A program made the translations under genes and the position numbers. The notes beneath the pieces were generated by a model that searched no databases, had not been told where the DNA came from, and saw only the letters and a list, made by a program, of their open reading frames with translations. From an uncultured Arthrobacter sp. (GTDB taxonomy: Bacteria > Actinomycetota > Actinomycetes > Actinomycetales > Micrococcaceae), in contig NZ_CANLXP010000010.1 of assembly GCF_947495145.1 (NCBI RefSeq), positions 1-64,000 of the forward strand: a stretch of 64,000 nucleotides of DNA, read 5' to 3'. This document shows positions 43,995 to 63,038 of this stretch, piece by piece; position 1 is the stretch's first letter, and every line of letters begins with the position of its first letter.

Positions 43995-44062
43995 GGGTCC
44001 CGTCTTTCGAAGAAGATTCTTCGCCGGGACTGTCCTGCAGAACCCGCCGAAGAAACGACGAA

Positions 44063-44182: not shown

Positions 44183-44189
44183 GGCATCG

Positions 44190-44217
44190 AGCGTAACCGG
44201 CATGCCGGCCATTGCAA
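44190..44217 (-). promoter_or_regulatory. aroG leader promoter
   Basis: On the minus strand TTGCAA (44217-44212), 16 bp and TACGCT (44195-44190) form a plausible housekeeping promoter. The -10 ends 7 nt before the leader-peptide ATG, as in leaderless actinobacterial transcripts. A CCGGCATGCCGG palindrome lies in the spacer. Confidence 0.5.
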
Positions 44218-44289
44218 ACTGCGGTACCGGTTTGTGACTGCCGTCCCTTCGGGCTATCACCAATCCCAGCTGTCTGGCATGGAATGCAA

Positions 44290-44736: not shown

Positions 44737-44789
44737 CCCATTACCATAACCGTATATATCGAAAGCGGCATCCCTTGCGTCATCGCAAG

Positions 44790-46004: not shown

Positions 46005-46109
46005 CCAAGCAGGCTACGCGATCCGCACCGGTCCTGCCCACGGCCGGTGTGTGGAAGTGGTTTACTACTCTTCAGGACGCAGCAGGAGAAACGGAGCGGA
46101 TCAGCAAGC

Positions 46110-48183: not shown

Positions 48184-48237
48184 ACGGGTTACGCGCCCTC
48201 AACGAGACATACGCACCCTGGGGTCACGTCCGAAAGC

Positions 48238-49083: not shown

Positions 49084-49196
49084 CGGACCATCGTGTCATG
49101 CCTGATGGATTCCCAGCGTCCTCACAGGCCCTATGGGGTGCAGTTCCCAGAAATAGCAGTACAGTCGTTATTACCTCATAAAGGTGCGAGTGATGA

Positions 49197-49286
49197 GGCC
49201 GGGCTCTCCCTGGCCCGGTCGGTGCCGGTGAGCCGCAGCAGTGTTTCCCCCAATCACGCTGCAGGCTCACCGGCACTACCTTTTTG
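49197..49286 (+). ncRNA. Candidate small RNA with intrinsic terminator
   Basis: No plus-strand gene ends here, yet the plus strand carries two consecutive hairpins and a U-tract. Hairpin 1 is GGCCGGGC / GCCCGGTC (49197-49220). Hairpin 2 (49222-49276) has a 13-bp perfect stem GTGCCGGTGAGCC, continues with GCAGC/GCTGC and GTG/CAC, and ends in an 11-nt loop with five C. TACCTTTTT follows. The C-rich loop recalls actinobacterial 6C RNA, but only one such loop is present. The 5-prime end is undefined (upstream TACAGT and TTATTACC are possible -10 elements). Confidence 0.5.
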
Positions 49287-49355
49287 TCCGCTGCTGGGCC
49301 CTCTCGTCTGCTTCGCGCTCGTGTCCTAGGCGCGGCACGCGGCCGGGGGCCTCAG

Positions 49356-50342
49356 TCAGCGCGTTCCCAGGTGCACGTGCCCGACGCCGACCGACGGCAT
49401 GGGCTCGTCTGCCTCGAACATGAGGGTGTCGAAGCGGCGGAGGATCAGTCCTTCGCGCAGCGCCCACGGACAGATGTCCATCTCCTGCACGTTGAAGACT
49501 TCGAACGCCGCCTCGGCGACCAGTGCACCGGCAAGCACCTGGCGCGCCCGCAGCTCGGAAACGCCGTCGAGATTTGTCCGGTCGCCTACGGGCATGGCCT
49601 CCAGCCGCTTCGCCCACAGGGAGAGGTCCTGACGACGCAGCGTTCGTCGGACAAACGGGCCCGCTGCAGACGGGGCCGCACCGGCAATACGCGCCAGGGA
49701 CCGGAAGGTCTTCGATGTCCCGGCAACCAGGTGTGGTTCGCCGAGGACAGCAAAGGCGCCTGCTGACTCCTTGAGGGTTTGCCGAATGTAGCGGCGCAGG
49801 TTCTTGACGTCGAGCGGCGTCGGCGGATCGCCGGGGAGCCTCTCTCTGGTGAGGCGTCCGGCACCCAGCGGGACCGACCGCGCAACTTCGGGCAGCTCGT
49901 CCTGGCCCATGGCCATCTCAAACGATCCGCCGCCGATGTCCAGGTTGAGAATGGACCCGGTGCTCCACCCGTACCAGCGCCGTACCGCCTGGAAGGTCAT
50001 GGCGGCTTCCTGGTCTCCGGAAAGCTCCTGGAGGACCACCGAGGTCTCAGCCTCAACCCGCCGCAGGACGTCTGCGCCGTTTCCGGATTCCCGGATAGCA
50101 GAGGTGCAGAAGGCGAGGAAGTCTTCCGCGCGATGATCGTTCGCGAAGGCGCGAGCCTGGCGGATGAAACCTACAAGTTCCCGCTGGCCCTCTTCACTGA
50201 TCCGCCCCTCGGCATCCAGGTGGCTCACCAGTTGGAGCGGGCGCTTATGGGAAGCGTAAGGCACCGGCCGCGCCCCTGGGTGCGCATCCACCAGGAGTAG
50301 ATGAACCGTATTGGATCCGATATCAAGGACGCCTAGCCGCAT
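49356..50342 (-). CDS. Ppx/GppA family phosphatase
   Basis: Exopolyphosphatase or pppGpp phosphatase-like protein of 328 aa, sugar-kinase/actin fold. Motifs are LGVLDIGSNTVHLLLVDA at the N-terminus (about 3-20), SAIRESGNG (about 86) and NLDIGGGSFEMAMG (about 132-145). This is the short actinobacterial form (Rv0496/Rv1026-like, recalled) without a C-terminal HD domain. Cytosolic. It precedes proC by about 270 bp on the same strand and follows topA. Exact substrate not decided. Confidence 0.9.
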   Translation of the reverse strand: MRLGVLDIGSNTVHLLLVDAHPGARPVPYASHKRPLQLVSHLDAEGRISEEGQRELVGFIRQARAFANDHRAEDFLAFCTSAIRESGNGADVLRRVEAETSVVLQELSGDQEAAMTFQAVRRWYGWSTGSILNLDIGGGSFEMAMGQDELPEVARSVPLGAGRLTRERLPGDPPTPLDVKNLRRYIRQTLKESAGAFAVLGEPHLVAGTSKTFRSLARIAGAAPSAAGPFVRRTLRRQDLSLWAKRLEAMPVGDRTNLDGVSELRARQVLAGALVAEAAFEVFNVQEMDICPWALREGLILRRFDTLMFEADEPMPSVGVGHVHLGTR

Positions 50343-50386
50343 GAGCCCATTATGTCGCGCAGCGCTTCCACGGTCTCAACCAGCTA

Positions 50387-53146
50387 CTACTTGCGTGCAG
50401 TGGCCTTGCGCTTGGCCGGCGCGCGCCCGCCGGACTTTCGTGGTGCCGGGCCTTTCTCGCGCTTCTCGGCCAAGAGCGCTACGGCGGTTTCCCGGGTCAG
50501 CTCCTCGATAGCGGTAGACCTGGGCACGGTGATGTTCGTGACGCCGTCCGTAATGTACGGACCAAAACGGCCTTCCTTGACCACAATCGGCTTTTCGGAC
50601 ACCGGATCATCACCGAACTCGGCCAGCGGCGGGGTTGCGACCCTTCCGCCACGCTGCTTGGGCTGGGAGTAGATCTCCAGCGCCTGTTCCAGCGTGATGG
50701 TGAAAATCTCCTCCTCCGAACCGATCGAACGCGAGTCCGAGCCCTTCTTGAGGTAGGGACCGAACCGGCCGTTCTGGACAGTGATCTCGTTGCCTTCAGC
50801 GTCCTTGCCCAGAACCCTGGGAAGATTCATCAGCTTCAGTGCGTCCTCAAGCGTGACCGTCTCAACGGTCATCGACTTGAACAGCGAACCGGTACGCGGC
50901 TTGACCTTCACGGGCTTTTTCGGTGGCTTGGGCTTGCCGTTCTTGTAGTACTCGACCGGCTGGTTGGCCAGCTCCTCTGCGGTAGGTTCCGGGATGATCT
51001 CGATGACGTACGGCCCGTAGCGGCCGTCCCGTGCCACGATGGACCGTCCCGTCTCCGGATCGGTTCCCAGGACGCGCTCCTCGGACGCGGGGCTGTTCAT
51101 CAGCTCCACAGCCTTCTCTGCCGTCAGTTCATCGGGAGCGAGGTCCTCGGGGACGTTTGCCCGCTGGGGCTCCGTACCTTCCGGCGCATCCTCGGGCAGC
51201 GGCTTCTCAAGGTACGGGCCGAACTTGCCGACGCGCAGGACTATGCCCTCAGCGATTTCCACCGAGTTGATACGGCGGGCGTCGATCTCCCCGAGATCGT
51301 TCACGATCGTGCTCAGCCCGGTATCCTTGCGGTCCCCGTAGTAGAAGTGGTTCAGCCACTGGACGCGGCTCTCCTCGCCGCGAGCGATGCGGTCGAGGTC
51401 CTCCTCGAGTTCGGCGGTGAAGTCATAGTCCACGTAATCGGTGAAGTGTTCCTCGAGCAGCCGAACCACCGAGAACGCAATCCAGCTTGGAACCAGCGCC
51501 TGACCACGGGAGCGGACGTAACCCCGGTCCATGATGGTGGATATCGTTGCGGCGTAGGTGGAAGGCCTGCCGATACCGCGTTCTTCCATCAACTTCACCA
51601 GGGACGCTTCGGTGTAGCGCGGAGGAGGAGAAGTCTCATGGCCGATCGGTTCGATGGCTTCCGCGCCCAGGGCGTCGCCCGTAGCGAGATTGGGCAGACG
51701 GCCGCCCTGTCCCGACTGACCGTTTCCGCCGGCAGCGTCGTCCTCGTCGCGAGAGGCGTCCCTGCCCTCCTCATACGCGGCCATGAAACCACGGAAGGTG
51801 ATGACAGTACCGGAAGCGGAGAATTCCGCGTCTTTCCCGTCCGGAGTGCTCGCTCCCAGCCGGACTGACGCCGTCGAGCCCTTGGCGTCTGCCATCTGGG
51901 AAGCAACGGTGCGCTTCCAGATCAGCTCGTACATGCGGAACTCGTCACCGCGCAGCTCATTTGCTACCTGGGCGGGTGTCCGGAAAGAGTCGCCGGCGGG
52001 ACGAATCGCTTCGTGGGCTTCCTGGGCGTTCTTGGACTTGCCCTTATAAATGCGGCGGGCGTCCGGGACGTACTCTGCGCCGTACAGCTCGGAAGCCTGG
52101 CGCCGGGCGGCGTCGATTGCCTGGTCGCTCAGCGCAGGCGAATCGGTTCGCATGTACGTGATGTAACCGTTCTCGTACAGGCGCTGGGCTACCTGCATGG
52201 TTACGCGGGAAGAGAAGCGCAGCTTGCGGGCGGATTCCTGCTGCAGCGTGGAGGTGGTGAAGGGCGCCGCAGGACGACGGGTGTATGGCTTTGTGTCTAC
52301 CGAGCGGACCTCGAAGGCAGCCTGCTGAAGCCCCTCGGCCAGGGCCGTTGCGGCCGCTTCGCTCAGCACGGCGACGCTCTGTGACTTCAGCTGGCCGAGG
52401 TCGCTGAAGTCCTTGCCTGTGGCGACCCGGGTTCCGTCCACGGAGATGAGTTTCGCGGTGAAGGACTCACCTTTTGACGTATCTTCCGGCGAGAACGTAC
52501 CCGTCAGATCCCAGTACGACGCCGCACGGAACGCCATGCGCTCACGTTCACGCTCGACCACCAGACGAGTAACTACCGACTGCACGCGGCCGGCGGACAG
52601 CCCGCGGGCAACCTTCCGCCACAGCACCGGGGAAATTTCATAGCCATAGAGGCGGTCGAGAATCCGACGCGTTTCCTGGGCATCCACCATGGGAATGTCG
52701 AGGTCGCGCAACTCCTCCATGGCACGTTGAATGGCCTCGCGCGTGATTTCCGGGAAGGTGAGCCGGTAGACGGGGACCTTCGGCTTCAACACCTCGAGGA
52801 GGTGCCAGGCAATGGCCTCGCCTTCCCTGTCACCGTCAGTTGCGAGGTACAGTTCGGTGGCGTCCTTAAGAGCCGTCTTCAACTCGGCGACACGCTTCTT
52901 CTTATCGGCCGATACCACGTAGTACGGCTCGAAGTCCTTCTCCAGATCCACCGCGAATTTGCCGAGCGAGCTCTTCTTGAGCTCCGCGGGCAAGTCCGAT
53001 GGCTGCGGCAGATCTCGGATATGTCCCATCGATGCGGCGACTTCGAAGCCCTCCCCGAGGTAGCCGGCAATCGTCTTCACCTTGGTCGGAGACTCGACGA
53101 TGACGAGCTTCTTGCCGGGCTTCTTGTTCGTTGCCTTAGCTGGCAC
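50387..53146 (-). CDS. topA: DNA topoisomerase I
   Basis: Type IA topoisomerase (919 aa) that relaxes negative supercoils. The Toprim domain begins KLVIVESPTKVKTIAGYLG (about 13-31) with the ATDGDREGEAIAWHL metal site. Active-site Tyr331 lies in YITYMRTDS. Four C-terminal Topo_C repeats with GRFGPY or GRYGPYV motifs, then a Lys/Arg/Ala-rich tail, replace zinc fingers, as in other actinobacteria. GTG 53146 is preceded by GAGGAG. The 113-bp upstream region has GGGCA/TGCCC dyads. Confidence 0.97.
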   Translation of the reverse strand: MPAKATNKKPGKKLVIVESPTKVKTIAGYLGEGFEVAASMGHIRDLPQPSDLPAELKKSSLGKFAVDLEKDFEPYYVVSADKKKRVAELKTALKDATELYLATDGDREGEAIAWHLLEVLKPKVPVYRLTFPEITREAIQRAMEELRDLDIPMVDAQETRRILDRLYGYEISPVLWRKVARGLSAGRVQSVVTRLVVERERERMAFRAASYWDLTGTFSPEDTSKGESFTAKLISVDGTRVATGKDFSDLGQLKSQSVAVLSEAAATALAEGLQQAAFEVRSVDTKPYTRRPAAPFTTSTLQQESARKLRFSSRVTMQVAQRLYENGYITYMRTDSPALSDQAIDAARRQASELYGAEYVPDARRIYKGKSKNAQEAHEAIRPAGDSFRTPAQVANELRGDEFRMYELIWKRTVASQMADAKGSTASVRLGASTPDGKDAEFSASGTVITFRGFMAAYEEGRDASRDEDDAAGGNGQSGQGGRLPNLATGDALGAEAIEPIGHETSPPPRYTEASLVKLMEERGIGRPSTYAATISTIMDRGYVRSRGQALVPSWIAFSVVRLLEEHFTDYVDYDFTAELEEDLDRIARGEESRVQWLNHFYYGDRKDTGLSTIVNDLGEIDARRINSVEIAEGIVLRVGKFGPYLEKPLPEDAPEGTEPQRANVPEDLAPDELTAEKAVELMNSPASEERVLGTDPETGRSIVARDGRYGPYVIEIIPEPTAEELANQPVEYYKNGKPKPPKKPVKVKPRTGSLFKSMTVETVTLEDALKLMNLPRVLGKDAEGNEITVQNGRFGPYLKKGSDSRSIGSEEEIFTITLEQALEIYSQPKQRGGRVATPPLAEFGDDPVSEKPIVVKEGRFGPYITDGVTNITVPRSTAIEELTRETAVALLAEKREKGPAPRKSGGRAPAKRKATARK

Positions 53147-53259
53147 TTCACTCCTCGATACAGGTGCTTCTTAAAGAGCAGAACAACCGCTCAACCTGAG
53201 CTCAATATCTGAATTGGTGGGCATCCTGCCCTTCTCAGTATGCGGTACGCCTACCTGCA

Positions 53260-54885
53260 CTAGGGTAACGGCTCCGTCGGGGCACCAGAGTCGGGGACGA
53301 GGAAACCATCCTTGACCAGGTTGCGCACTTCCTCCAGCAGCGCGTCGGAGAACGCGTCGTCGTCGCGATTCAGCAGTGCCGAAAGGGCACCGATGATCTG
53401 ACCCGCCGAAAGGTCGCCGTCGCACGCTGAAACGAAGCCGGCCAGCTCCGTGCTTAGCAGCGTGGTGCGTCGGAAACCGGCTCCCTGCCGGAGCAGGATC
53501 ACGCCGGGATGTTCAGCTCCGGGCCGCTGATGCCGCTCCTCGGTGACGTCCTCCGCAACGAGCAGGTGCTGGCCAGGCAGGTCGGCACAATCGCCCAGCC
53601 AGTCGTGCCGCGCAACCGCTGCGCTGACGTGGGGTCCGATTGGCTGCTCAAGGTCGTAGGTAATTTCTTCGAAGCGACGCAGCGTCGCCGGGCCGCCGGT
53701 ATTCCGCAGCCAGACCATACCGAACCCGATGTGCTCGACGGAACGGGACCCGAAGTCAGCGAGGTAGTCGCTGAAGCGCTCAGCGAATCTGGCCGGATCC
53801 CGGTTTTCGGCGGCATCTCGCAGCCACGTCTCGGCGTAGTGGGTAGGAGTGAGCTGCTCGCGCTGAACCACCCAGACATCCGCGGTATCCGGGACCCAGC
53901 CCGCAACTCTCCCGTCCCAGGTCTGACCTTCCGGGATCTCCCAGTTGCCCAGGAGCTGCGCCGTTCCGCCCGGCGAAAGTACTGATGGGATGCCGCCGAG
54001 CAGGGACGACACGATGTCGTCGCCCGCAAGGCCGCCGTCGCGGTAGGTGAACTGGTCCTCCACTCTTTCACCGGTGCTGCGCGGAGTGATCACGAACGGC
54101 GGATTGGACACGATCTGGTCGAACGTCTCCCCCGATACCGGCTCCAGCAAGCTTCCCAACCGAAGACAGACGCGGGCGTCGAGGTCCGCCGGGTCGATCC
54201 CGAGCGCCGACGCGTTGAGCAGCAGATTGAACCGGGTGACGGCGAGCGCCCGTTCGGAGATGTCGGTGGCGGTGATATGGCGGGCGTGGGCCAGGAGGTG
54301 AAAGGTCTGGATTCCGCAGCCGGTGCCCAGGTCGAGTGCCCGGTCCACGGGAGCGCGCGCCGCGAACTGGGCAAGGGTCAGCGATGCCCGCCCGATCCCG
54401 AGCACGTGATCGGTTCGCAGTACCCCGGGCCGGACGTGGGAACCGAGGTCGGAGGCCACCCACACATCGCCGCCGGTGTCCGAAGAATAGGGGCGGAGGT
54501 CCATCAAGGCGCGGACACCGCCGTCGTACTCTTCCACGAGCCCCAACGAAAGCAGGCCGGCGGCACCGGTCGATGGAAATGCGGCATCCAGCGTTGCGGC
54601 GGGTGCGCTCTCGCCGAGCATGAAAACCAGCACGACGGCGGCGAGCCGGCTTTCGGAGCTGTGCTGTCCTTCCTGCTGCTGTCCTTCCCGCTCCTGCGCA
54701 GCGCGCGCGGCAAGCAGAGCCGGCACGGTCTGGTCCCGCTCCAGTGCGGCATAGGCGTCAGTACCGACCAGGTTCGCGACGCCGTCGACCGTGTAATTCA
54801 CAGTTGTCAGATCCGCGGCGAGTCGGTTCAACAGGTCCTGGTCATCGCTCTGCGGGGCATCGGGTACTTCGGCAAAATTCAACAC
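53260..54885 (-). CDS. Class I SAM methyltransferase (HemK/MTS-like)
   Basis: Predicted methyltransferase of 541 aa with an actinobacterial N-terminal helical region (about 1-150) and a central Rossmann domain. Motif I is ALDLGTGCGIQTFHLLAH (about 176-193), motif IV is IVSNPPFV (about 260), the NPPF tetrapeptide typical of N-methyltransferases acting on amide or amino groups. A C-terminal region (about 380-541) has no known domain to my eye. Start GTG 54885 follows TAGGCT by 6 nt (leaderless layout). Target may be protein, rRNA or DNA. It lies 113 bp from topA. Confidence 0.85.
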   Translation of the reverse strand: MLNFAEVPDAPQSDDQDLLNRLAADLTTVNYTVDGVANLVGTDAYAALERDQTVPALLAARAAQEREGQQQEGQHSSESRLAAVVLVFMLGESAPAATLDAAFPSTGAAGLLSLGLVEEYDGGVRALMDLRPYSSDTGGDVWVASDLGSHVRPGVLRTDHVLGIGRASLTLAQFAARAPVDRALDLGTGCGIQTFHLLAHARHITATDISERALAVTRFNLLLNASALGIDPADLDARVCLRLGSLLEPVSGETFDQIVSNPPFVITPRSTGERVEDQFTYRDGGLAGDDIVSSLLGGIPSVLSPGGTAQLLGNWEIPEGQTWDGRVAGWVPDTADVWVVQREQLTPTHYAETWLRDAAENRDPARFAERFSDYLADFGSRSVEHIGFGMVWLRNTGGPATLRRFEEITYDLEQPIGPHVSAAVARHDWLGDCADLPGQHLLVAEDVTEERHQRPGAEHPGVILLRQGAGFRRTTLLSTELAGFVSACDGDLSAGQIIGALSALLNRDDDAFSDALLEEVRNLVKDGFLVPDSGAPTEPLP

Positions 54886-55015
54886 GCAACAAGCCTATTG
54901 GGCTCGAGCCTTCCGTGTTGTTGCCGTGGAGCAGCGGGCAGATGGCCAAACCGGTAAGGCACTACGAAAGCCCCCGGGCGTTCCGCTCGAGAACGTCCTC
55001 GCTTACCATTGACGC

Positions 55016-55087
55016 ATGCACACCAGCCAGCGATTTATCAGCCCCCGGCCGCCTGTCGGCCGTGAGGGCATTGCGCTGCGCGTCTAA
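55016..55087 (+). CDS. Leaderless mini-ORF upstream of the PheS-like gene
   Basis: A 23-codon frame begins MHTSQRFISP and ends REGIALRV before TAA. The ATG lies 6 nt after TACCAT (55004-55009), so it is likely translated from a leaderless mRNA. It ends 75 bp before the PheS-like start. A hairpin GGGGGT-TTCTTC-ACCCCC (55119-55136) lies between. The layout resembles leader-peptide attenuation, but no U-tract or amino-acid codon run is evident. Expression is inferred. Confidence 0.5.
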   Translation: MHTSQRFISPRPPVGREGIALRV

Positions 55088-55118
55088 CTCCAGCTGAGTC
55101 CACACGGTGTCCGCGGTC

Positions 55119-55136
55119 GGGGGTTTCTTCACCCCC
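55119..55136 (+). promoter_or_regulatory. Hairpin in the leader of the PheS-like gene
   Basis: GGGGGT, loop TTCTTC and ACCCCC form a 6-bp GC-rich hairpin 26 bp before the PheS-like ATG and 31 bp after the mini-ORF stop. It might modulate read-through or ribosome access. No competing structure was identified by eye. Confidence 0.4.
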
Positions 55137-55162
55137 TCCCGGCACTCTCCAAAGGACCAGCT

Positions 55163-56278
55163 ATGTACCTCTCCATCCCCCAGCTCACCTCCGCCCTGTC
55201 CATCCGCGACCTGACCGATCCCGGGCAGGGACCCCACGCAATGCAGGAACTGCTCGACGGCGTCGTCAGCCGCTTGGTGCAAACCTGGAATGTCCCCGCT
55301 ACGGTCCACCGCACCACGCCCCTTGTTGCCACGGCCGACAACTATGACCGGCTTGGCTACGCGCACGACGACGTCACGCGGGATGCGCGCTACTCGCGCC
55401 ACGCCAGCCCCACGGTGATGCTTCGAAGTCACACCTCCGCCGGCGTCCCAGCTGTTCTTGACTCGCTGACGGAGATCGGGAACCCGTATGACCGGCTTCA
55501 CGTTCTTCCCGGATTGGTCTACCGCCGCGATGCGGTGGACCGGACGCACGTCGGAACCCCGCATCAGGTGGACCTGTGGCGACTCAAGGCGCGCGGCTTG
55601 CTGGGCGAGGCGGACCTTCACAGTATGGCCGCCGCCGTCGTCGATGCCGTTCTGCCCGGCGCGCGCTGGCGGGCCGTCCCTGCTGCCCATTCCTATACCT
55701 CTCATGGCCTTCAGATAGACGTCGAAACGTCGGCCGGTTGGCTTGAGCTGGCCGAGTGCGGCCTGGTGCACGCCAGGATCCTTCGAAGCGCTGGGCTTGA
55801 TCCTCGGCGCTGGAGCGGCCTTGCACTCGGGATGGGGTTGGACCGTGCTCTGATGCTGCGTAAGGGCGTGGACGACATCCGGCTGCTGCGCTCGCCTGAC
55901 CCCCGCATCGCGGCGCAAATGCTCGACCTTGGACCCTGGCGCCCGGTGTCGCTCATGCCTGCGGTCCGGAGGGATTTATCCATACTGAGCACACCGGAGG
56001 CGGATGCGGAGATCCTTGGAGATGTTGCCCGCGAGGCGCTCGGGAAGGACGCGGATGTGCTGGAGTCACTGGTGATCCGTGCACGGACGCCGGTGGAGCA
56101 GCTGCCGGCTGCCGCGGTCGTCCGTCTTGAAGCACAGCCGGGGCAGGTGAACCTGCTGGTCCGCCTCACGCTTCAGGCGCTGGACCGCACGCTGACCGAC
56201 GGGGAGGCGAACAGGTTGCGGAACCGCGTATACCGCGCGTTGCATCAGGGCCCGGTCCTTGAATTGGCGGCCGGCTGA
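55163..56278 (+). CDS. PheS-like synthetase core fused to FDX-ACB domain
   Basis: A 371 aa class II synthetase-like protein. Residues about 85-240 align with the PheS catalytic core: VMLRSHTSAGVP, motif-2-like YRRDAVDRTHVGTPHQVD (about 119-136), ELAECGLVHARILRSAGLDP, and motif 3 LGMGLDRALMLRKGVDD with Arg228. Residues about 264-371 match the PheT-type ferredoxin-fold anticodon-binding domain (MPAVRRDLSI to RTLTDGEANRLRNR). The FPFTEPS amino-acid loop of PheS is replaced by AAHSYTSHG and the AFG of the pocket by ALG, so the substrate is probably not phenylalanine. I recall the family label PheS-related mystery ligase SrmL. ATG follows AAAGGA. Confidence 0.8.
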   Translation: MYLSIPQLTSALSIRDLTDPGQGPHAMQELLDGVVSRLVQTWNVPATVHRTTPLVATADNYDRLGYAHDDVTRDARYSRHASPTVMLRSHTSAGVPAVLDSLTEIGNPYDRLHVLPGLVYRRDAVDRTHVGTPHQVDLWRLKARGLLGEADLHSMAAAVVDAVLPGARWRAVPAAHSYTSHGLQIDVETSAGWLELAECGLVHARILRSAGLDPRRWSGLALGMGLDRALMLRKGVDDIRLLRSPDPRIAAQMLDLGPWRPVSLMPAVRRDLSILSTPEADAEILGDVAREALGKDADVLESLVIRARTPVEQLPAAAVVRLEAQPGQVNLLVRLTLQALDRTLTDGEANRLRNRVYRALHQGPVLELAAG

Positions 56279-56291
56279 GGGCTGGGCGGTT

Positions 56292-56361
56292 AGGCGGCGC
56301 CGACGGCCGTGGCTGGGTCACGTCCGGGCGGTAAGGTCAGGCGGCGCCGACGGCCGTGGCT
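56292..56361. repeat. 23-bp direct duplication at the trhO 3-prime end
   Basis: AGGCGGCGCCGACGGCCGTGG plus CT occurs at 56292-56314 and again at 56339-56361, 47 bp apart. The second copy contains the last codons of trhO; the first lies beyond its stop. It is a local duplication of the gene end. Confidence 0.85.
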
Positions 56362-57248
56362 TCAGCCTCGTCCGTTTCGCACCCTTGCGGGCAGCGAAGC
56401 GTAGCCGGGTCGGCGGCACACCCGGCGCAGTACAGCGTCAGATTGCGGCAGCTCAGGTTGGAGCAGTTCTCGAACTTGTTGGTGGGAGCGGAGCAGCGGA
56501 CGCATTTGCCGATTGTCTTGGCGTCTTTGGTGAACTCGACGTGCATGCGCTTGTCGAAGACGTAGAGCGAGCCTTCCCAGAGACCCGCGTCCCCGTGTGT
56601 CTCCCCGTAACGCACAATGCCGCCCTGCAGTTGGTACACCTCGTTGAATCCGCGGTTGACCATCAGGCTGGAAAGCACCTCACAGCGGATGCCGCCGGTG
56701 CAATACGTGACCACCGGCTTGTCCTTCAAGTGGTCGTACTTCCCGGAATCGAGCTCGCTCACAAAATCGTGGGTGGTGTTTACATCCGGGACGATCGCGT
56801 TCCGGAACTTCCCAATCTGGGCCTCAAGCGCGTTGCGCCCGTCGAAGAATACGACGTCGTCGCCGCGTTCGTTGACCAGCTGATGCAGTTGTTCGGGCTT
56901 GAGATGAGTGCCGCCGCCGACCACACCGTTCTCGTCCACCTTCAGTTCACCCGGTGCGCCGAAGGACACGATCTCATCGCGGACCTTGATGCTGAGCCGG
57001 GGGAAGTCCTCGGCACCACCCTCGGACCACTTGATGTCCATCTTCTTGAAGGCGGGATACTCCCGGGTTGCCTTTACGTACTGCTTGACGGCGTTGAGTT
57101 CACCGCCGACGGTGCCGTTGATACCGTCCTTCGAGATGAGAATCCTGCCGCGGAGGCCCCATTTTTCACACAGGGCGCGCTGCCATAACCGCACAGCCTC
57201 GGGGTCGGGCAGCGGCGTGAACGCGTAGTAGAGGACGATTCGGTTCAT
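56337..57248 (-). CDS. trhO: tRNA uridine-34 5-hydroxylase TrhO (rhodanese family)
   Basis: Oxygen-dependent hydroxylation of wobble uridine in tRNA (formerly YceA). The 303 aa protein has an N-terminal acylphosphatase-like region ([20 protein letters not shown]), a rhodanese domain with catalytic Cys in [11 protein letters not shown] (about 190), and a C-terminal Cys-rich segment ([25 protein letters not shown]) that probably binds zinc. ATG 57248 is chosen over a longer upstream start by homology. It is divergent from the GNAT gene. Its 3-prime end is partly duplicated. Confidence 0.93.
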
Positions 57249-57352
57249 TGACACGCAATAAAGCGTACCGGCGTGCACGCGAGAGGTCTCAAATCAGCAA
57301 CCTATTCGCCGAGCTATGTCTTTACGGGCGGGCCACCACTATGGTTCCAGTC

Positions 57353-58003
57353 ATGGGAGCCGCTCTTTCTGATCAACTTGTCCGCACGTGGGTTTCGGGC
57401 TGGGCAAAGTGCCGCGGTTATGCGCCACAGGACAACGGGAGCAGCATGTCGGTCCTGCTCACGGACCAACAGGACCACCTCGAGACCATCGTTTATGAAC
57501 CAACTATCGGCGAACTCCTTGATCTCGCCGAAGAGACCCGCGAAGACTCTTATCGCGTGCTCACGGTGATCACCAACCGCGCGCAAGAGCTCCTCGAGGC
57601 GGTGGCTCCGCTTGGGATGCGGGTCACCGATCGCCAGCAGGCTCTGATGTGCGCCGATATGGATGGCCAGGATGTCGAAGACCCTCGCCCACCGGACGAC
57701 GAGTTCAAACTTGAGCACATTCGCGAGGCGGACTGCAGGCGCGTTCTGGTGACTGTGAACGGCGAGGAGGCCGCTCGGGGGTCGGTAGCCAAACAGGATG
57801 AACACGCTGTCTATGACCGCATCATCACTTCGCAGCAGTATCGGCGCCGGGGCTTAGGCAGCTTCGTGATGCGCGCGCTGACGGCCGACATCCTGGGAGA
57901 CGACGTCGAAACCGGCTTGCTGATGGCCTCCGAGGAGGGACGCCAGCTGTACCAATACCTGGGCTGGACGCACCTGGCTGATACCTTTGTGATCCGCCGC
58001 TGA
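57353..58003 (+). CDS. GNAT-family acetyltransferase
   Basis: A 216 aa protein with a C-terminal GNAT fold: ARGSVAKQDEHAVYDRIITSQQYRRRGLGSFVMRAL (about 140-178) contains the acetyl-CoA loop RRRGLG, and QLYQYLGWTHLADTFVIRR is the usual end. The N-terminal half is less conserved. ATG 57353 is preferred because TATGGT lies 7 nt upstream; ATG 57341 is possible. It precedes the helicase by 73 bp. Substrate unknown. Confidence 0.78.
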   Translation: MGAALSDQLVRTWVSGWAKCRGYAPQDNGSSMSVLLTDQQDHLETIVYEPTIGELLDLAEETREDSYRVLTVITNRAQELLEAVAPLGMRVTDRQQALMCADMDGQDVEDPRPPDDEFKLEHIREADCRRVLVTVNGEEAARGSVAKQDEHAVYDRIITSQQYRRRGLGSFVMRALTADILGDDVETGLLMASEEGRQLYQYLGWTHLADTFVIRR

Positions 58004-58076
58004 CGTCAGCTCGCTCGATCCCTTGCTCGAACTGATCGCCCCTAACTGATTTGTGTCGGGGTGACAAAATGGCTGG

Positions 58077-60431
58077 ATGCTTGCTCATGATTCCCTGATT
58101 CCGCTGCTTGGCGGAGTTGATCCTGAGCAACTGGTTCACGTGCGCCAACTTCCGGCCCGCGATGCCGTGCACAGCCCTTGGCCCGAATGGGTTCACCCCG
58201 ATGTGGTTGAGGCCTACCGGTCCCGCGGGATTTCCGAGCCCTGGAAGCATCAGAGCGTTGCAGCGGATGCCGCTCATGCAGGGTCGCACGTCGTCATTGC
58301 CACGGGCACTGCCTCAGGAAAATCACTGAGCTACCAGCTGCCCGTTCTGGACGCAATCCACCGTTCAGCGCTGGCGGAGAAAGTGTCGCTCGAGCCGACC
58401 GGTGCCGTCGCACTGTATCTCTCGCCGACCAAAGCGCTCGCCGCCGACCAGCTTTCCGCCATTTCCTCTCTTGGCCTGGCTACAGTCCGGGCGGACACCT
58501 ACGACGGCGACACCGACTCGGGCGCGCGGCGCTGGATCCGTGATCACGCCAATCTCGTCCTGGCGAACCCGGACATGCTGCACTATGGGATCCTGCCGAA
58601 TCATGCCTGGTGGGCACGGTTTTTCCGGCGCCTCACCTACGTGATTGTGGACGAAGCGCATAGCTACCGCGGCGTTTTCGGGTCGCACGTTGCCAATCTG
58701 CTGCGGAGATTGCGCCGGGTGTGCGCGTACTACGGGGCGAATCCCGTGTTCATCGGTGCGTCAGCGACCTCCGCCGCGCCGGCTGAGTCCTTCGGGAAGC
58801 TGATCGGTGCTCCCGTTCGGGCTTTCACTGAGGACACGTCGCCCCACGGGTCGACGACGGTGGCTTTCTGGGAGCCGCAGTTGACCGATCTTCGGGGGGA
58901 GAACGGCGCCCGGCAACGCAGGACCGTGATTGCCGAGACGTCCGATTTGCTGGCCAATCTGGTGTCGGCACAGGTTCGGACCATCGCCTTCATCAAATCG
59001 CGCCGAGGCGCAGAGAGCATCGCAGCGAACACCAAGCGGCTGCTCAGCGAGGTCGATCCGAAACTGCCAGCGCGCGTCGCAGCCTACCGGTCCGGTTACT
59101 TGCCCGAGGAACGTCGCCAGCTGGAGTCCGCCTTGCGGTCCGGTCGGTTGCTCGGCGTGGCGAGCACGTCCGCGCTGGAGCTGGGGATCGATATTTCAGG
59201 CCTGGACGCGGTTCTGGTGGCCGGCTGGCCGGGTACCCGTGCGTCCCTGCTGCAGCAGATCGGGCGGGCGGGGCGTTCCGGCCAGGACGCGCTTGCCGCC
59301 TTCGTTGCGAGCGACGATCCGCTCGATACCTACCTCGTCCACCACCCTGAAGCAGTGTTCGATGTGGGCGTTGAGGCGACGGTCTTCGATCCCGCCAACC
59401 CCTACGTGCTCGGACCACACCTATGCGCTGCGGCCGCTGAACTACCGCTGACGGTCGAGGATCTGCCGCTTTTCGGGGAAACGGCTCCTGCCCTGCTGGA
59501 TCAGCTGGTGGACCAGGGGCTGCTGCGCAACCGCCCCGCAGGTTGGTTCTGGACTCATCCGCAAAGTGCTGCCGGCATGGTCAACCTGCGTGCGGACGGC
59601 GGAGGCCCGATCAACATCATCGAGAGCGAAACCGGCACGGTACTCGGCACGATGGACTCTCCGCAAAGCCACTATCAGGCTCATGCCGGCGCAATTTATG
59701 TCCACCAGGGCCAGAGCTATGTTGTCGAGGAACTGAACGAGCAGGACCACTGCGCCATCGTGACCCGTTCCAATCCCGACTACTACACGCAAGCGCGGGA
59801 CGTCACCCAGATCGAGGTGATCTCCGAACACCGCAGCGTGCCGTGGGGTCCCATCCGGGTGTGCTTCGGGGAGGTGAAGGTGACAACCCAGGTGATTTCC
59901 TTCCAGCGCAAGGCCTTTGTCTCGAATGAAATCCTCGGTGAGGAACCGCTGGACCTCGGCGCACGGGACCTTTTCACCAAGAGCGTCTGGTTCGAGTGCG
60001 ACAACCGGCTACTCGAAAGCAGCGGAATCAGCGCCGCGGATCTTCCGGGAGCACTCCATGCCGCCGAACATGCCGCGATCGGGCTGCTGCCCCTCGTCGC
60101 GTCGAGTGACCGCTGGGATATCGGCGGAGTGTCGACGGCGCTGCACGCGGACACCGGATTGCCCACCATCTTTGTCTATGACGGCCACCCCGGCGGTGCC
60201 GGCTTCGCCGAGCGGGGTTTCGAGGCGGCGAAGACCTGGCTGGGAGCCACGGCGGAGGCGATCCGATCGTGTGAGTGTGACGCTGGCTGTCCCTCCTGCG
60301 TTCAGTCGCCGAAGTGCGGCAACCGCAACAACCCCCTCAGCAAGGATGGAGCCCTCACGCTGCTCAACATGCTGCTGGCGCAGGCTCCGGACGGTGAGCC
60401 CACGCCAGCCAACGGCATGTCGGACGGGTAA
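58077..60431 (+). CDS. DEAD/DEAH-box helicase with DUF1998 (YprA/MrfA type)
   Basis: Predicted 3'-5' DNA helicase of 784 aa related to YprA/MrfA and Hrq1, linked to repair of mitomycin-type damage. Walker A is ATGTASGKSLSYQLP (about 80-94), the DEAH box is IVDEAHSYRG (about 190), SAT-like GASATSAAP (about 226) and motif VI QIGRAGRSGQ (about 395). The C-terminal DUF1998 zinc site has four Cys in CECDAGCPSCVQSPKCGN (about 733-750), characteristic of the MrfA group. It is convergent with the tad locus (12 bp), an order I recall from mycobacteria (Rv3649 and Rv3654c onward). Confidence 0.93.
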   Translation: MLAHDSLIPLLGGVDPEQLVHVRQLPARDAVHSPWPEWVHPDVVEAYRSRGISEPWKHQSVAADAAHAGSHVVIATGTASGKSLSYQLPVLDAIHRSALAEKVSLEPTGAVALYLSPTKALAADQLSAISSLGLATVRADTYDGDTDSGARRWIRDHANLVLANPDMLHYGILPNHAWWARFFRRLTYVIVDEAHSYRGVFGSHVANLLRRLRRVCAYYGANPVFIGASATSAAPAESFGKLIGAPVRAFTEDTSPHGSTTVAFWEPQLTDLRGENGARQRRTVIAETSDLLANLVSAQVRTIAFIKSRRGAESIAANTKRLLSEVDPKLPARVAAYRSGYLPEERRQLESALRSGRLLGVASTSALELGIDISGLDAVLVAGWPGTRASLLQQIGRAGRSGQDALAAFVASDDPLDTYLVHHPEAVFDVGVEATVFDPANPYVLGPHLCAAAAELPLTVEDLPLFGETAPALLDQLVDQGLLRNRPAGWFWTHPQSAAGMVNLRADGGGPINIIESETGTVLGTMDSPQSHYQAHAGAIYVHQGQSYVVEELNEQDHCAIVTRSNPDYYTQARDVTQIEVISEHRSVPWGPIRVCFGEVKVTTQVISFQRKAFVSNEILGEEPLDLGARDLFTKSVWFECDNRLLESSGISAADLPGALHAAEHAAIGLLPLVASSDRWDIGGVSTALHADTGLPTIFVYDGHPGGAGFAERGFEAAKTWLGATAEAIRSCECDAGCPSCVQSPKCGNRNNPLSKDGALTLLNMLLAQAPDGEPTPANGMSDG

Positions 60432-60443
60432 TCCTCCTTTCGG

Positions 60444-60815
60444 CTAGGGACCTGGTGACGGTGGACCGGCTCGTGCCCGCCCCGATGCCGGGGGAAGTGC
60501 AGGAATGGAATCGACCTCGGTAGAAACTCGAACGATGTGTCCTGATTCTCCCTCGATCAAGCACTCTGTCAGCCGGGCTTCATGAAGGGACGCGACCTCG
60601 GCGGCTACCGCACAGGGGCTCCCGTCGCGGAGCCCGCGTGCGGCGTCAGCCCCCGCGAGTGCAGACAGATCCGCCGCTGTTGCTGCCCTGGATGCTGCCA
60701 CTGACGCCTGCGCGAACAGGACAACAACTGACAGAAGCAGCAGAGCTGCCATGGCGACGCCGGCCATCAGCGCGGTGCCGGCTCCGGATTCCTTGTCCGG
60801 ACCGACGCGCATCAT
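60444..60815 (-). CDS. TadE-like pseudopilin (helicase-neighbourhood type)
   Basis: A 123 aa protein with an N-terminal hydrophobic helix (GAGTALMAGVAMAALLLLSVVVLFA region) after a short basic leader, followed by an Ala-rich extracytoplasmic stalk. This is the small Rv3654c-like TadE-type protein found beside the DUF1998 helicase. ATG overlaps the tadE stop by 4 nt. The C-terminus is Pro/Arg-rich. Role: minor pilin-like component of a Tad/Flp pilus; inferred. Confidence 0.8.
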   Translation of the reverse strand: MMRVGPDKESGAGTALMAGVAMAALLLLSVVVLFAQASVAASRAATAADLSALAGADAARGLRDGSPCAVAAEVASLHEARLTECLIEGESGHIVRVSTEVDSIPALPPASGRARAGPPSPGP

Positions 60816-61180
60816 TCCTGCTCCGGAAGAGCGACGGCACGCGCGGAGAGGTTAACGTCGAGCAGATTCAGGACCGGCACATCAACAGTGGTTGTCACGG
60901 TTACGGTGTTGTAGGAACCCCCGGATTGAACGGCAATATGTGCCTGCTCTCCAGCGATCCTGCGAACGGTGCCATCCACAACAGCGGAAGATTCGCCACG
61001 CATCAGCTCACGTGCCCCGGCCCTTGCCGCTTCCTCTATCCGCAGTTGTGACAGACCGAGCGTCGCAGCGGCAAGAACAACTGCCAGCACCACAATCACC
61101 GCCGGGAATGCGACTGCCGCCTCCGCAGTCACAGCACCATCTTCCCTGCCGCGCACCTTCCGCGGTTCCGTCCGGTCCAC
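60812..61180 (-). CDS. tadE: TadE-family pilus assembly protein
   Basis: A 122 aa pseudopilin with the TadE pattern: EDGAVTAEAAVAFPAVIVVLAVVLAAATL (conserved Glu near the hydrophobic helix, about 13-41) and then a beta-rich extracytoplasmic domain. It resembles Rv3655c. Four-nt overlap with the next gene and 6-bp gap from the DUF4244 gene place it in the operon. A prepilin peptidase is not in the window. Confidence 0.87.
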   Translation of the reverse strand: MDRTEPRKVRGREDGAVTAEAAVAFPAVIVVLAVVLAAATLGLSQLRIEEAARAGARELMRGESSAVVDGTVRRIAGEQAHIAVQSGGSYNTVTVTTTVDVPVLNLLDVNLSARAVALPEQE

Positions 61181-61185
61181 GAGGG

Positions 61186-61473
61186 TCAGCCGAAGCTGAG
61201 CGCGTTGGTGATCAGCGACATGAGCATGCCGCGGATCTCACCGCTCGAAAGGACCGCCACCAGGAGAGCGGCGAAGCCTACAGCTGCGAGCGTGGCAATC
61301 GCGTATTCGGCGGTAGCAAGGCCGGCCTCGGACCGCATCAGTTCACGCCGGGTGCGGCGGTTGGGCTTGGCGGGGGGCGGCTGCAGACGGGTCACGGTGG
61401 CGAGCGGACGATCCTGATTGGGGCATTCCGGCGCGTCCTCGTGAAGGACGGTTGGTGCGATGGAACCTGTCAT
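61186..61473 (-). CDS. DUF4244 protein, Flp pilin-like
   Basis: A 95 aa protein with a charged, Pro-rich leader (about 1-48), then SEAGLATAEYAIATLAAVGFAALL, the Glu-Tyr motif and hydrophobic helix of Flp-type pilins. It is DUF4244 (Rv3656c-like), probably the major pilin. ATG 61473 follows AAGGAG. The 277 bp upstream to tadC show no other gene and probably hold its own promoter, in keeping with high pilin expression. Confidence 0.85.
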   Translation of the reverse strand: MTGSIAPTVLHEDAPECPNQDRPLATVTRLQPPPAKPNRRTRRELMRSEAGLATAEYAIATLAAVGFAALLVAVLSSGEIRGMLMSLITNALSFG

Positions 61474-61750
61474 GACAACTCCTTGGATAGTAACTTTTCC
61501 AGGTGGTCCTGGCTGGACGATCCAGCGGGTGCTGTCTCGTCCGAACCGCTTCAGCGGCTGATTCGAGTCTTCCGCCCGGCTGAGCCTCGGACCGGTGGAG
61601 ATTCAGATAAGTGGAAAAGCGCAGTACTTTCCCTCCGACTGTGGAGTGCGAATGCGAATGCGGGTGCGGCCTGCGGCGGCGGCAACAGACAGGGTGCACG
61701 CAGAGGGACGGGTGAGTTGCCGCAGTCCTGACGCGGTGCGCAACACAAAG

Positions 61751-62314
61751 TCAGGTGAAGGCGGGAAAGAGGCCAACCAGGACGGGGATAACGCCGAGGC
61801 AGACAAAAGCCGGTAACGAACAGAGGCCCAGCGGCACCACCAGCCGCACGCCCAGGGCGGCAGCACGCTGCTCCGCCTCCCGGTTCCTTCTGCGCCTGAA
61901 TTGGGCAGCGTGCGCAGTCACAACGGCGGCGGATGGCGCCCCTGTTGTACCGGCGAACCGCAAGGCGTGACCGAGTTCGTGGGCGGCCTTGCCGCTCCCT
62001 GTGCGCGGAACCGCCGCCCACGCCACTTCCCAGGGCGCACCGAGGTCCAGCGCCGTCTTGACTGCCGTCAGTGCGGCACTCACCGGAGGTGAAGATGACC
62101 GCGCAAGGACGTCGAGGCCCCGGTCCAGGGACGACCCAACCGCGAGCATCGACGCCATAAGGTCCATCATGAGCGCTGGATCGTCCAGCCCCTTCCACTG
62201 GCTATGGGCGGATTCGCCTTGCGAGGAGCTATTCGGGAGGGTTACCAGCGGCGGCGAGCGGTGGAGCAACCAGCAGCCGGCCAGGAGAAGTGCCGCCACA
62301 AACGCACCTGTCAT
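61751..62314 (-). CDS. tadC: TadC-like type II/IV secretion F protein
   Basis: Inner-membrane platform protein of the Tad pilus, 187 aa. It has an N-terminal hydrophobic segment, a cytosolic GspF-like helical domain (DPALMMDLMASMLAVGSSLDRGLDVLA, ELGHALRFAGTTGAPSAAVV) and a C-terminal membrane pair (RLVVPLGLCSLPAFVCLGVIPVLVGLF region). ATG overlaps the tadB stop by 4 nt. Resembles Rv3657c. Confidence 0.87.
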   Translation of the reverse strand: MTGAFVAALLLAGCWLLHRSPPLVTLPNSSSQGESAHSQWKGLDDPALMMDLMASMLAVGSSLDRGLDVLARSSSPPVSAALTAVKTALDLGAPWEVAWAAVPRTGSGKAAHELGHALRFAGTTGAPSAAVVTAHAAQFRRRRNREAEQRAAALGVRLVVPLGLCSLPAFVCLGVIPVLVGLFPAFT

Positions 62315-63036: not shown

Positions 63037-63038
63037 GC

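What the first reader, a model, noticed from the sequence alone, without database searches (positions are those of the whole stretch)
55163..56278. PheS catalytic core fused to an FDX-ACB domain with a rewritten amino-acid pocket
Bacterial PheRS is an alpha2-beta2 enzyme; here one 371-residue chain joins a PheS-like core to the anticodon-binding domain normally at the PheT C-terminus, as in mitochondrial PheRS. Motif 2-like RRDAVDRTH and motif 3 Arg228 are kept. The PheS loop FPFTEPS, whose two Phe residues stack on the substrate in the T. thermophilus enzyme, is replaced by AAHSYTSHG, and GFAFG becomes GLALG. This argues for ATP-dependent activation of something other than Phe, perhaps transferred to a tRNA or another acceptor. 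I recall a family label SrmL (PheS-related mystery ligase), so the family may be noted but functionally undescribed.
Basis: partly seen in the sequence, partly recalled or inferred. Interest (0 to 1): 0.78.

Follow-up and report, generated by a model that had tools for sequence, protein, structure and literature searches.

The report
Likely mobile spare phenylalanine-tRNA enzyme
A gene that databases call a 'mystery ligase' looks like a compact, mobile spare version of the enzyme that loads tRNA-Phe, and it carries its own RNA switch with a phenylalanine codon, so a nameless protein family now has a testable job.

Summary
The gene encodes a full-length member of NCBIfam NF051887, 'PheS-related mystery ligase SrmL' (513 bits, cut-off 300), and canonical pheS and pheT lie elsewhere in the genome.

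Two new lines tie SrmL to tRNA-Phe. First, in 51 loci analysed the gene is preceded by a tiny upstream ORF with a conserved Phe codon; two damaged copies lack it. Its RNA has mutually exclusive helices whose strands fit their own partners, as in an attenuator. In 38 related genomes the leader model's strong hits all lie before srmL. Second, SrmL-family genes occur on five very large phage contigs. In one, the nearest tRNA gene on each side is tRNA-Phe(GAA).

Best explanation: a mobile single-chain auxiliary PheRS-type enzyme, made when Phe-tRNA-Phe runs short. Shown: family, leader, mobility, context. Inferred: aminoacylation, the amino acid (Phe likeliest, Tyr possible) and the switch's direction; one equilibrium fold speaks against that direction.

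The parts
55163..56278 (+). srmL: single-chain PheS-type catalytic core plus FDX-ACB-like domain, 371 aa
   Evidence: NF051887 513 bits; 51-sequence alignment A1; AlphaFold pLDDT 93.4; Foldseek best matches are mitochondrial PheRS
55202..55918 (+). class II catalytic core (about residues 14-252): motif 2 RRDAVDRTH, HPYT-type pocket loop (H176, Y178), GLALG, motif 3 R228
55952..56251 (+). FDX-ACB (B8-like, anticodon-binding) domain, about residues 264-363
   Evidence: Pfam 28.9 bits over residues 326-362, under the gathering score of 31.1; invariant R270, D271, S273, N350, H361, G363; whole-length fold match
55004..55009 (+). TACCAT, -10-like hexamer 6 nt before the upstream ORF, suggesting a leaderless upstream ORF
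   Evidence: 48 of 51 leaders have T-A-N-N-N-T ending 4-9 nt before the chosen start (where several starts were possible this hexamer helped choose); the consensus promoter scan found nothing
55016..55087 (+). upstream ORF MHTSQRFISPRPPVGREGIALRV*, a leader peptide with one Phe
   Evidence: found in the 51 loci analysed (sought with an F.{1,3}P pattern, then seen in alignment A2 of 50 rows)
55034..55036 (+). Phe codon TTT after rare Arg codon CGA (55031-55033)
   Evidence: TTT in 48 and TTC in 3 of 51 leaders; TTT is 13% of Phe codons in the called ORFs around
55041..55051 (+). strand 1, GCCCCCGGCCG
   Evidence: pairs with strand 2 and with the downstream G-rich stretch
55057..55069 (+). strand 2, CGGCCGTGAGGGC; pairs with strand 1 (hairpin P1) or strand 3 (antisequestor)
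   Evidence: 1:2 z -5.4, 2:3 z -2.05; P1 96.7% of cells paired, 20 double-change cells against 8.3 in shuffles
55096..55107 (+). strand 3, GAGTCCACACGG: anti-Shine-Dalgarno just after the upstream ORF
   Evidence: 3:4 z -6.8, 0 of 2000 permutations
55114..55123 (+). G-rich stretch CGGTCGGGGG, complementary to strand 1
   Evidence: 1:LR z -4.6; RNAalifold double changes
55151..55158 (+). strand 4: Shine-Dalgarno AAAGGACC of srmL

Best explanation
SrmL is a mobile, single-chain auxiliary PheRS-type aminoacyl-tRNA synthetase that acts on tRNA-Phe. It works beside the housekeeping PheS2T2 enzyme, without an editing domain, like mitochondrial PheRS. It is expressed on demand. A ribosome reading the leaderless upstream ORF pauses at the rare Phe codon (CGA-UUU) when Phe-tRNA-Phe is short and covers strand 1. 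Strand 2 then pairs with strand 3 (the anti-Shine-Dalgarno), the srmL ribosome site is freed, and more enzyme is made. When Phe-tRNA-Phe is plentiful the ribosome runs to the stop codon, 2:3 cannot form, and strand 3 closes the Shine-Dalgarno. Gene and leader move together as a cassette of about 1.4 kb. Shown here: family, architecture, leader, cognate-specific helices, insertion, spread to plasmids and large phages, tRNA-Phe genes beside phage copies. Inferred: aminoacylation, tRNA-Phe as acceptor, Phe as the likeliest amino acid, the direction of the switch, and the benefit (a spare enzyme when PheRS is inhibited or limiting).
For: Leader: F conserved in 51 upstream ORFs while its neighbours change. 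Helices 1:2, 3:4 and 1:LR are cognate-specific in 18 representatives, 0 of 2000 permutations each; 2:3 41 of 2000; controls 2:4 and 2:LR null. In transcripts ending before the Shine-Dalgarno, mean 2:3 paired nt is 8.8 with the ribosome at Phe, 4.3 with none and 0.45 at the stop codon (51 leaders), Phe above stop in 17 of 18 representatives; window 11.0, 0.3 and 1.9. Leader model R1 in 38 genomes (75 candidates scored in each): five hits at E<1e-20, each directly before an srmL gene, including both copies of one genome; next best E 0.004. Azotobacter plasmid: upstream ORF with the same CGA-TTT, then a terminator-like hairpin GCCCCTGGTCCTAGCACCCAGGGGC with T run; before strand 4 is made 2:3 forms at P 0.8 with the ribosome at Phe (also with none) and at 0 at codons 18-21, 0.2-0.3 at the stop. 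Phage LR745206: MNTNTTFNFFFSHKMV* then a hairpin with a T run. Phages: five proteins above the SrmL cut-off; L104 flanked by tRNA-Phe(GAA) on both sides in a 17-tRNA array (chance 0.007); L106 near SerRS and a HisRS-like gene. Single-chain fold. Empty site: 24 of 30 genus loci examined lack srmL between the rhodanese gene and the methyltransferase. Precedent in S. lividans: leader peptides before leuS, trpS (one Trp codon) and thrS, stated as leaderless, and before alaS (PMC8079986 passages); duplicated, inhibitor-resistant TrpRS1 (PMC9437257 passage).
Against: No activity data. Equilibrium folding of full-length RNA hardly moves SD openness (0.31 free, 0.37 at Phe, 0.34 at the stop, 0.42 two codons before the stop; 51 leaders), and in Azotobacter a ribosome at Phe gives P(terminator) 0.97 against 0.001 free and 0.03 at the stop codon, the opposite of the proposed direction. 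A block four codons before Phe opens 2:3 as well as one at Phe, and in 4 of 18 representatives a block at Phe lowers 2:3 relative to free RNA. 2:3 covariation is only suggestive, and control 1:3 reaches z -1.7. For P1 two of five covariation measures do not stand out from shuffles (37 and 200 of 500). Two copies (L024 without its own start codon; L038 with start and Shine-Dalgarno but a disrupted frame) have no leader match. In phage LR745206 the terminator forms in every modelled state. Pocket residues H176, Y178 and P133 differ from the PheRS chains aligned here. 107 bits against the mitochondrial PheRS model, cut-off 258. Of five phage contigs two have tRNA-Phe in the stretch held, one an array without Phe, two no tRNA; for L105 the proximity could be chance (0.16).
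Confidence: 0.6

Rival explanations
1. SrmL charges tRNA-Phe with an amino acid other than Phe, for example Tyr or a hydroxylated or oxidised aromatic, so that ribosomes stalled at Phe codons are relieved by deliberate mistranslation during Phe-tRNA shortage.
For: The pocket has polar aromatic H176/Y178 and T179 invariant, and no Phe at the position of human Phe438 in 51 members (my mapping to residue 202). No editing domain was matched. PheRS misactivates Tyr, and mitochondrial PheRS, which lacks editing and has Thr at the V261 position, attaches Tyr stably (PMC3275996 section 5). Any aminoacyl-tRNA-Phe would relieve the leader stall.
Against: A221, at the position that guards against para-substituted rings (PMC3275996 passage), is invariant. 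Tyr-tRNA-Phe would be open to hydrolysis by the host PheT, which is present. Eukaryotic N-x-Y PheRS selects Phe.
Confidence: 0.17
2. SrmL is a non-translational ligase that passes an activated amino acid to a small molecule, peptide or protein, like other class II synthetase paralogues.
For: Divergent pocket; P133 where PheRS has the adenine-stacking Phe; family named only 'ligase'.
Against: The C-terminal domain is kept over the whole family profile, unlike paralogues that lost tRNA binding (recalled). Apart from srmL no protein cluster occurs in more than 13 of 59 neighbourhoods (three are duplicates, 16 are shorter than 10 kb). Phe-codon leader; phage copies beside tRNA-Phe and synthetase genes.
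Confidence: 0.12
3. The leader senses a ribosome-targeting drug through nascent-peptide arrest near codon 7 (as in erm leaders, recalled), and SrmL is part of a resistance or stress response not specific to Phe.
For: F sits mostly at codon 7-8, after Arg in 41 of 51. The gene is single, mobile and plasmid-borne; on one plasmid it lies next to a Cmx chloramphenicol exporter gene. A block anywhere early in the upstream ORF opens 2:3.
Against: F is the only residue invariant in all 51 (a Pro three codons on is kept in 50), the residue before it changes between R and S, and its position ranges from codon 4 to 10. The rare codon TTT is used in 48 of 51. The phage leader has four Phe codons, FNFFF.
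Confidence: 0.1
4. SrmL is a catalytically dead tRNA-Phe-binding regulator.
For: P133 replaces the adenine-stacking Phe.
Against: R121, R122, D123, D126, Q135, D137 and R228 are invariant in 51 members and in the 13-row alignment with phage and plasmid members.
Confidence: 0.05

Closest known systems
NCBIfam NF051887 'PheS-related mystery ligase SrmL'
   Same: Full-length match far over the cut-off (513 against 300 bits); the Azotobacter plasmid copy and five phage relatives also pass.
   Different: The label names no function; the leader, the phage/tRNA-Phe context and the empty site are not part of it.
Mitochondrial single-chain PheRS (FARS2, TIGR00469)
   Same: Catalytic core plus C-terminal anticodon-binding domain in one chain, no editing domain; whole-length fold match. 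PMC3275996 (passages) calls it a chimera of the alpha-subunit core and B8.
   Different: 107 bits against a cut-off of 258; HPYT instead of FPFT, P133 instead of F216; bacterial, mobile, beside a complete pheST.
Single-chain PheRS of phage contig L108 (IMG/VR 3300043411)
   Same: Same two-domain architecture; 268 bits to SrmL, under its cut-off of 300.
   Different: Canonical FPFTQPS, FHQMEA, GFAFG; passes TIGR00469 (347 bits, cut-off 258).
Duplicated or leader-controlled aaRS of actinobacteria (TrpRS1; trpS, leuS, thrS, alaS with leader peptides)
   Same: Second copy of a synthetase; upstream ORF holding the cognate codon; alternative RNA structures (PMC8079986, PMC9437257 and PMC1262725 passages).
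   Different: [quoted passage not shown] operons' (PMC1262725 passage). Here control appears to act on the Shine-Dalgarno in actinobacteria, with terminator-like hairpins seen in the Azotobacter and LR745206 copies.
Proteobacterial pheST/pheA attenuators
   Same: Phe codons in a leader peptide with competing hairpins (pheST attenuator mentioned in PMC1262725 passage; details recalled).
   Different: One early Phe codon in cellular copies, probably leaderless, Shine-Dalgarno sequestration instead of a terminator.

Membership tests
NCBIfam NF051887 SrmL | whole-protein score over the curated cut-off of 300 bits | tested here: met
   513 bits, residues 14-363, profile 1-349 of 349
Bacterial PheRS alpha subunit (PheS, TIGR00468) | score over the cut-off of 237 bits | tested here: not met
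   90 bits
Bacterial PheRS alpha subunit (PheS) | encoded with pheT as its partner | tested here: not met
   no pheT beside it; the genome's one pheT match lies next to canonical pheS on contig C2
Mitochondrial-type single-chain PheRS (TIGR00469) | score over the cut-off of 258 bits | tested here: not met
   107 bits
Mitochondrial-type single-chain PheRS | catalytic core and C-terminal FDX-ACB in one chain with the same fold | tested here: met
   AlphaFold and Foldseek, whole length, E 3.8e-27; FDX-ACB by Pfam alone is under threshold
Mitochondrial-type single-chain PheRS | FPF-type Phe pocket | tested here: not met
   HPYT, GLALG
PheRS (function) | ATP-dependent Phe activation and tRNA-Phe aminoacylation | not testable with these tools
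   needs purified enzyme
Attenuator-controlled auxiliary aaRS | a second, housekeeping copy in the genome | tested here: met
Attenuator-controlled auxiliary aaRS | upstream ORF with cognate codon and mutually exclusive RNA helices | tested here: met
   2:3 is the weakest (41 of 2000 permutations)
Attenuator-controlled auxiliary aaRS | stall at the cognate codon raises expression | tested here: inconclusive
   supported by truncated-transcript folding, not by equilibrium folding
Attenuator-controlled auxiliary aaRS | resistance to an inhibitor of the housekeeping enzyme | not tested
   no data
Anti-phage defence genes (PADLOC) | match to a defence model | tested here: not met
   0 families for SrmL at E 0.01

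The most novel reading that the evidence does not exclude
SrmL loads tRNA-Phe with an amino acid other than Phe when Phe-tRNA is short, a gene-encoded, self-regulated reassignment of Phe codons that travels between bacteria, plasmids and huge phages.
Probability: 0.15. Interest if true: 0.92.

Novelty: new variant of a known kind. Interest (0 to 1): 0.72.

Why it matters
It gives a labelled but functionless family a concrete, cheaply testable function (tRNA-Phe charging) and a sensor whose input can be read with a reporter. It would be the first Phe-codon leader in actinobacteria known to me (the 2005 survey PMC1262725 found none, passage) and the first inducible auxiliary PheRS known to me. 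Searches aimed at the protein and at such leaders listed no description of either; this rests on listings and on one open-access library. If SrmL resists natural PheRS inhibitors it predicts such compounds in soil; if it loads another amino acid it would be regulated mistranslation. The copies in huge phages near tRNA-Phe and synthetase genes suggest that phages use it to secure Phe decoding.

Tried and rejected
Operon partners: apart from srmL no protein cluster occurs in more than 13 of the 59 neighbourhoods (three duplicates, 16 under 10 kb), so a biosynthetic pathway was dropped. tRNA genes beside cellular copies: 7 tRNA genes on 5 of 53 loci, none Phe; none in the window. T-box or other known RNA: Rfam gave nothing for window 44000-64000 and only two tRNAs for six relatives. 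Defence: PADLOC nothing for SrmL. Recent duplicate of the host's PheS: rejected, 30.6% identity over 206 aa and a separate 25-row group with 100/100 support in a 58-row tree rooted at the midpoint; the place of L108 is unsure (long branch).

The equilibrium SD-opening scan was too weak to fix the direction; the permutation test and truncated transcripts came after it, so the sets disagree in part and both are reported. On checking, the value first taken for 'ribosome at stop' was that of a codon before it; one search gives 0.34 at the stop. Rows left out: the set held 58 loci plus the window; from the leader work I dropped L053, L084, L085 (identical proteins to window, L003, L005), L043 (no upstream), L011 (153 nt upstream), L024 and L052 (no start found), L038 (frame disrupted). 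The model later matched the leader at L052 (84.5 bits) and L011 (42 bits) but not at L024 or L038; L038 has a start and Shine-Dalgarno, so it counts as a copy without the leader. Leaders were sought with an F.{1,3}P pattern, so 51 of 51 is not independent of that pattern; alignment A2 (50 rows; L055 not in it) is the check. In one search the segments of strands 1 and 2 share 2 nt, and the downstream segment was cut short for L046, L049 and L054. P1 is RNAalifold's own structure on that alignment. Scar search at three SrmL-free loci with wide gaps found no remnant. A scan with the LR745206 protein found no further relative; L109 is L104 again.
Full report
What is there. The ORF at 55163-56278 + is 371 aa and belongs to NCBIfam NF051887, 'PheS-related mystery ligase SrmL', at 513 bits over its whole length (cut-off 300). 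It scores 90 bits against PheS, 107 against mitochondrial PheRS and 9 against PheT, all far below their cut-offs. The model from 51 aligned homologues is confident (pLDDT 93.4), and its best solved relatives are human mitochondrial PheRS entries, aligned over the whole chain (E 3.8e-27, 21% identity); bacterial PheS follows for the catalytic part. By Pfam alone the FDX-ACB domain is sub-threshold here (28.9 against 31.1), and of five other SrmL-family proteins scanned only the Azotobacter one passes. The genome has canonical PheS and PheT side by side on another contig.

The pocket. In the alignment with solved bacterial PheS chains FPFTEPS stands over HSYTSHG, so the two Phe residues are replaced by His176 and Tyr178. 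In 51 family members H176, Y178, T179, G182, P133, Q135, D137, A221, R228 and the motif 2 residues R121, R122, D123, D126, R127 are invariant. With phage and plasmid members added (13 rows) all of these hold except R127, which is Lys in two phage rows. Eukaryotic cytosolic PheRS has Asn410 and Tyr412 at the two Phe positions and uses Phe438 as well (PMC12447630 passage; PMC3275996 section 5). SrmL has the Tyr but no Phe at the 438 position in any of 51 rows (my mapping). The loss of FPF therefore does not by itself show another substrate. Against an ordinary PheRS: invariant P133 stands where PheRS has the Phe that stacks on adenine (role recalled).

Spread. SrmL is rare and patchy: over the cut-off in 2 of 396 genomes drawn from the phylum, with one more interrupted copy, and in 6 of 38 genomes of the genus, one of which has two copies. 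The scan of genome contigs gave 50 loci, 49 titled as actinobacteria and one as an Acidobacteria metagenome bin. It also occurs on a Glutamicibacter plasmid (56% identity) and an Azotobacter plasmid (52%), with a partial match on a Corynebacterium diphtheriae plasmid, and in an uncultured huge phage (38%). In the genus, 37 of 37 genomes have the neighbouring rhodanese gene (UPF0176; TrhO is a recalled name). Of the 30 loci given, 6 had SrmL; in the other 24 the gap to the methyltransferase was 9-123 nt in 21 and 533-757 nt in 3. Gene plus leader is thus an insertion of about 1.4 kb. No protein family other than SrmL is shared by more than 13 of 59 neighbourhoods.

The leader. About 150 nt before the SrmL start lies a small ORF that begins 4-9 nt after a TANNNT hexamer in 48 of 51 leaders, so it is probably leaderless. 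All 51 hold a Phe at codon 4-10 (30 at codon 7); 7 of them have a second Phe further on. The early codon is TTT in 48 and TTC in 3, and the preceding codon is CGA in 38, while TTT and CGA are 13% and 7% of Phe and Arg codons in the ORFs around. The residue before Phe switches between Arg (41) and Ser (10) and the one after varies, but F does not. These leaders were sought with a pattern holding F. Of four dropped loci with at least 150 nt upstream the model matched two (L052, L011) and missed two (L024, L038). The Glutamicibacter plasmid copy also has the leader (58 bits). No Rfam family matches.

RNA structure. The window leader folds better than shuffles (z -3.1) into a hairpin inside the upstream ORF and a hairpin that closes the Shine-Dalgarno. 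RNAalifold on 50 leaders pairs the ORF's CCCCCGGC with a downstream GCCGGGGG, with double changes at several pairs. On 23 leaders the ORF hairpin P1 is 96.7% paired, with 20 double-change cells against 8.3 plus or minus 1.9 in shuffles and 0-8 when slid; the counts of pairs with double change (4 against 2.9) and of pair types (8 against 7.3) do not stand out. On 18 representatives under 70% identical I compared each leader's own strands with strands of other leaders: 1:2 z -5.4, 3:4 z -6.8, 1:downstream-G z -4.6 (0 of 2000 permutations each), 2:3 z -2.05 (41 of 2000); controls 2:4 and 2:G z +0.4, 3:G -0.6, 1:3 -1.7. This is the strand logic 1:2 / 2:3 / 3:4 of a ribosome-controlled attenuator, with strand 4 being the Shine-Dalgarno.

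Direction. In transcripts that end before the Shine-Dalgarno, 2:3 holds 8.8 paired nt on average with a ribosome at the Phe codon, 4.3 with none and 0.45 with a ribosome at the stop codon (51 leaders); Phe exceeds stop in 17 of 18 representatives, exceeds free in 11 and falls below it in 4; the window gives 11.0, 0.3 and 1.9. The Azotobacter leader, which ends in a terminator-like hairpin with a T run, gives 2:3 at 0.8 before its last strand is made, free or with the ribosome at Phe, and 0 at codons 18-21, 0.2-0.3 at the stop. Against this, equilibrium folding of full-length RNA gives only small changes of Shine-Dalgarno openness (0.31 free, 0.37 at Phe, 0.34 at the stop) and, for Azotobacter, a terminator at P 0.97 with a ribosome at Phe against 0.03 at the stop codon. 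A block four codons earlier acts like one at Phe. I take 'stall opens SrmL' as likelier because it is the classical logic and folding is co-transcriptional, but the direction is inferred.

Specificity. With the leader model, 38 related genomes gave five hits at E<1e-20, each just before one of the five srmL genes those genomes hold, and three weak ones at E 0.004-0.1 (only 75 candidates per genome were scored, so absence elsewhere is not exhaustive).

Independent sign from phages. Five phage proteins pass the SrmL cut-off (416-443 bits): four from very large IMG/VR contigs (415-578 kb) and the 635 kb LR745206. L104 carries 17 tRNA genes in the stretch held, two of them tRNA-Phe(GAA), and these two are the nearest tRNAs on either side of SrmL (chance about 0.007). 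L105 has 24 tRNAs with tRNA-Phe last but one before SrmL (chance 0.16). L106 has SerRS (440 bits) and a short HisRS-like gene upstream and 18 tRNAs, none Phe. L107 and LR745206 have no tRNA in the stretch held. Upstream of SrmL in LR745206 stands an ORF MNTNTTFNFFFSHKMV* followed by a hairpin with a T run, which resembles a classical Phe leader, though the folding programme found no competing antiterminator. Another phage contig, L108, holds a single-chain PheRS with the ordinary FPF pocket (347 bits to the mitochondrial model), so the architecture occurs in phages with a canonical active site. In a 58-row, midpoint-rooted tree the SrmL rows form one group (100/100), with the 20 cellular and plasmid rows together (97/91) and the five phage rows beside them (95/52).

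Reading. A synthetase-like protein that keeps its anticodon-binding domain, is preceded by a Phe-codon leader in bacteria, and lies beside tRNA-Phe in a phage is most simply a tRNA-Phe charging enzyme. Actinobacteria are known to put leader peptides before synthetase genes, including a leaderless one with a single Trp codon before trpS (PMC8079986 passages), and to keep second, inhibitor-resistant synthetases such as TrpRS1 (PMC9437257 passage; its control by ribosome-mediated attenuation is recalled, the papers were not held). No conserved RNA element for Phe was found in actinobacteria in the 2005 survey (PMC1262725 passage). Ochratoxin A is one natural Phe-like PheRS inhibitor (PMC7916415 passage). 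I searched the paper library ten times and saw in the listings no description of SrmL, of an auxiliary bacterial PheRS or of this leader; only searches were aimed at these. Of the papers I saw passages, plus section 5 of PMC3275996; none was read whole.

Noticed in passing
L108 5869-6879 (IMG/VR 3300043411_000610): A phage contig encodes a single-chain PheRS with canonical FPFTQPS pocket, passing the mitochondrial PheRS model (347 bits).
   Followed up: partly
L095 6856-6966 (LR745206, uncultured phage): Upstream ORF with four Phe codons (FNFFF) and a hairpin with a T run before a SrmL-family gene.
   Followed up: partly
L106 3145-7092 (IMG/VR 3300049793_000366): SerRS, a 211-aa HisRS-like protein and SrmL lie together between tRNA arrays.
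   Followed up: no
L107 4904-5998: A polynucleotide kinase/phosphatase-like gene directly precedes the phage srmL, perhaps RNA repair.
   Followed up: no
G431:C11:18038 and G431:C24:528179: One genome of the genus holds two srmL genes, each with its own leader.
   Followed up: partly
L093 5323-8104 (Glutamicibacter plasmid pGnB68): srmL, annotated as hypothetical protein, lies next to a Cmx/CmrA chloramphenicol exporter gene.
   Followed up: no
L038 8001-9072 (Arthrobacter sp. P2b): A copy with start codon and Shine-Dalgarno but a disrupted frame and no leader.
   Followed up: partly
window 53260-54885 (-): DUF7059/MTS methyltransferase with a match to the PADLOC mad2 model (55 bits); likely a housekeeping neighbour.
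   Followed up: no
L117, L118, L121: Three srmL-free relatives have 533-757 nt between the rhodanese gene and the methyltransferase instead of 9-123; no remnant of leader or gene was found there.
   Followed up: partly
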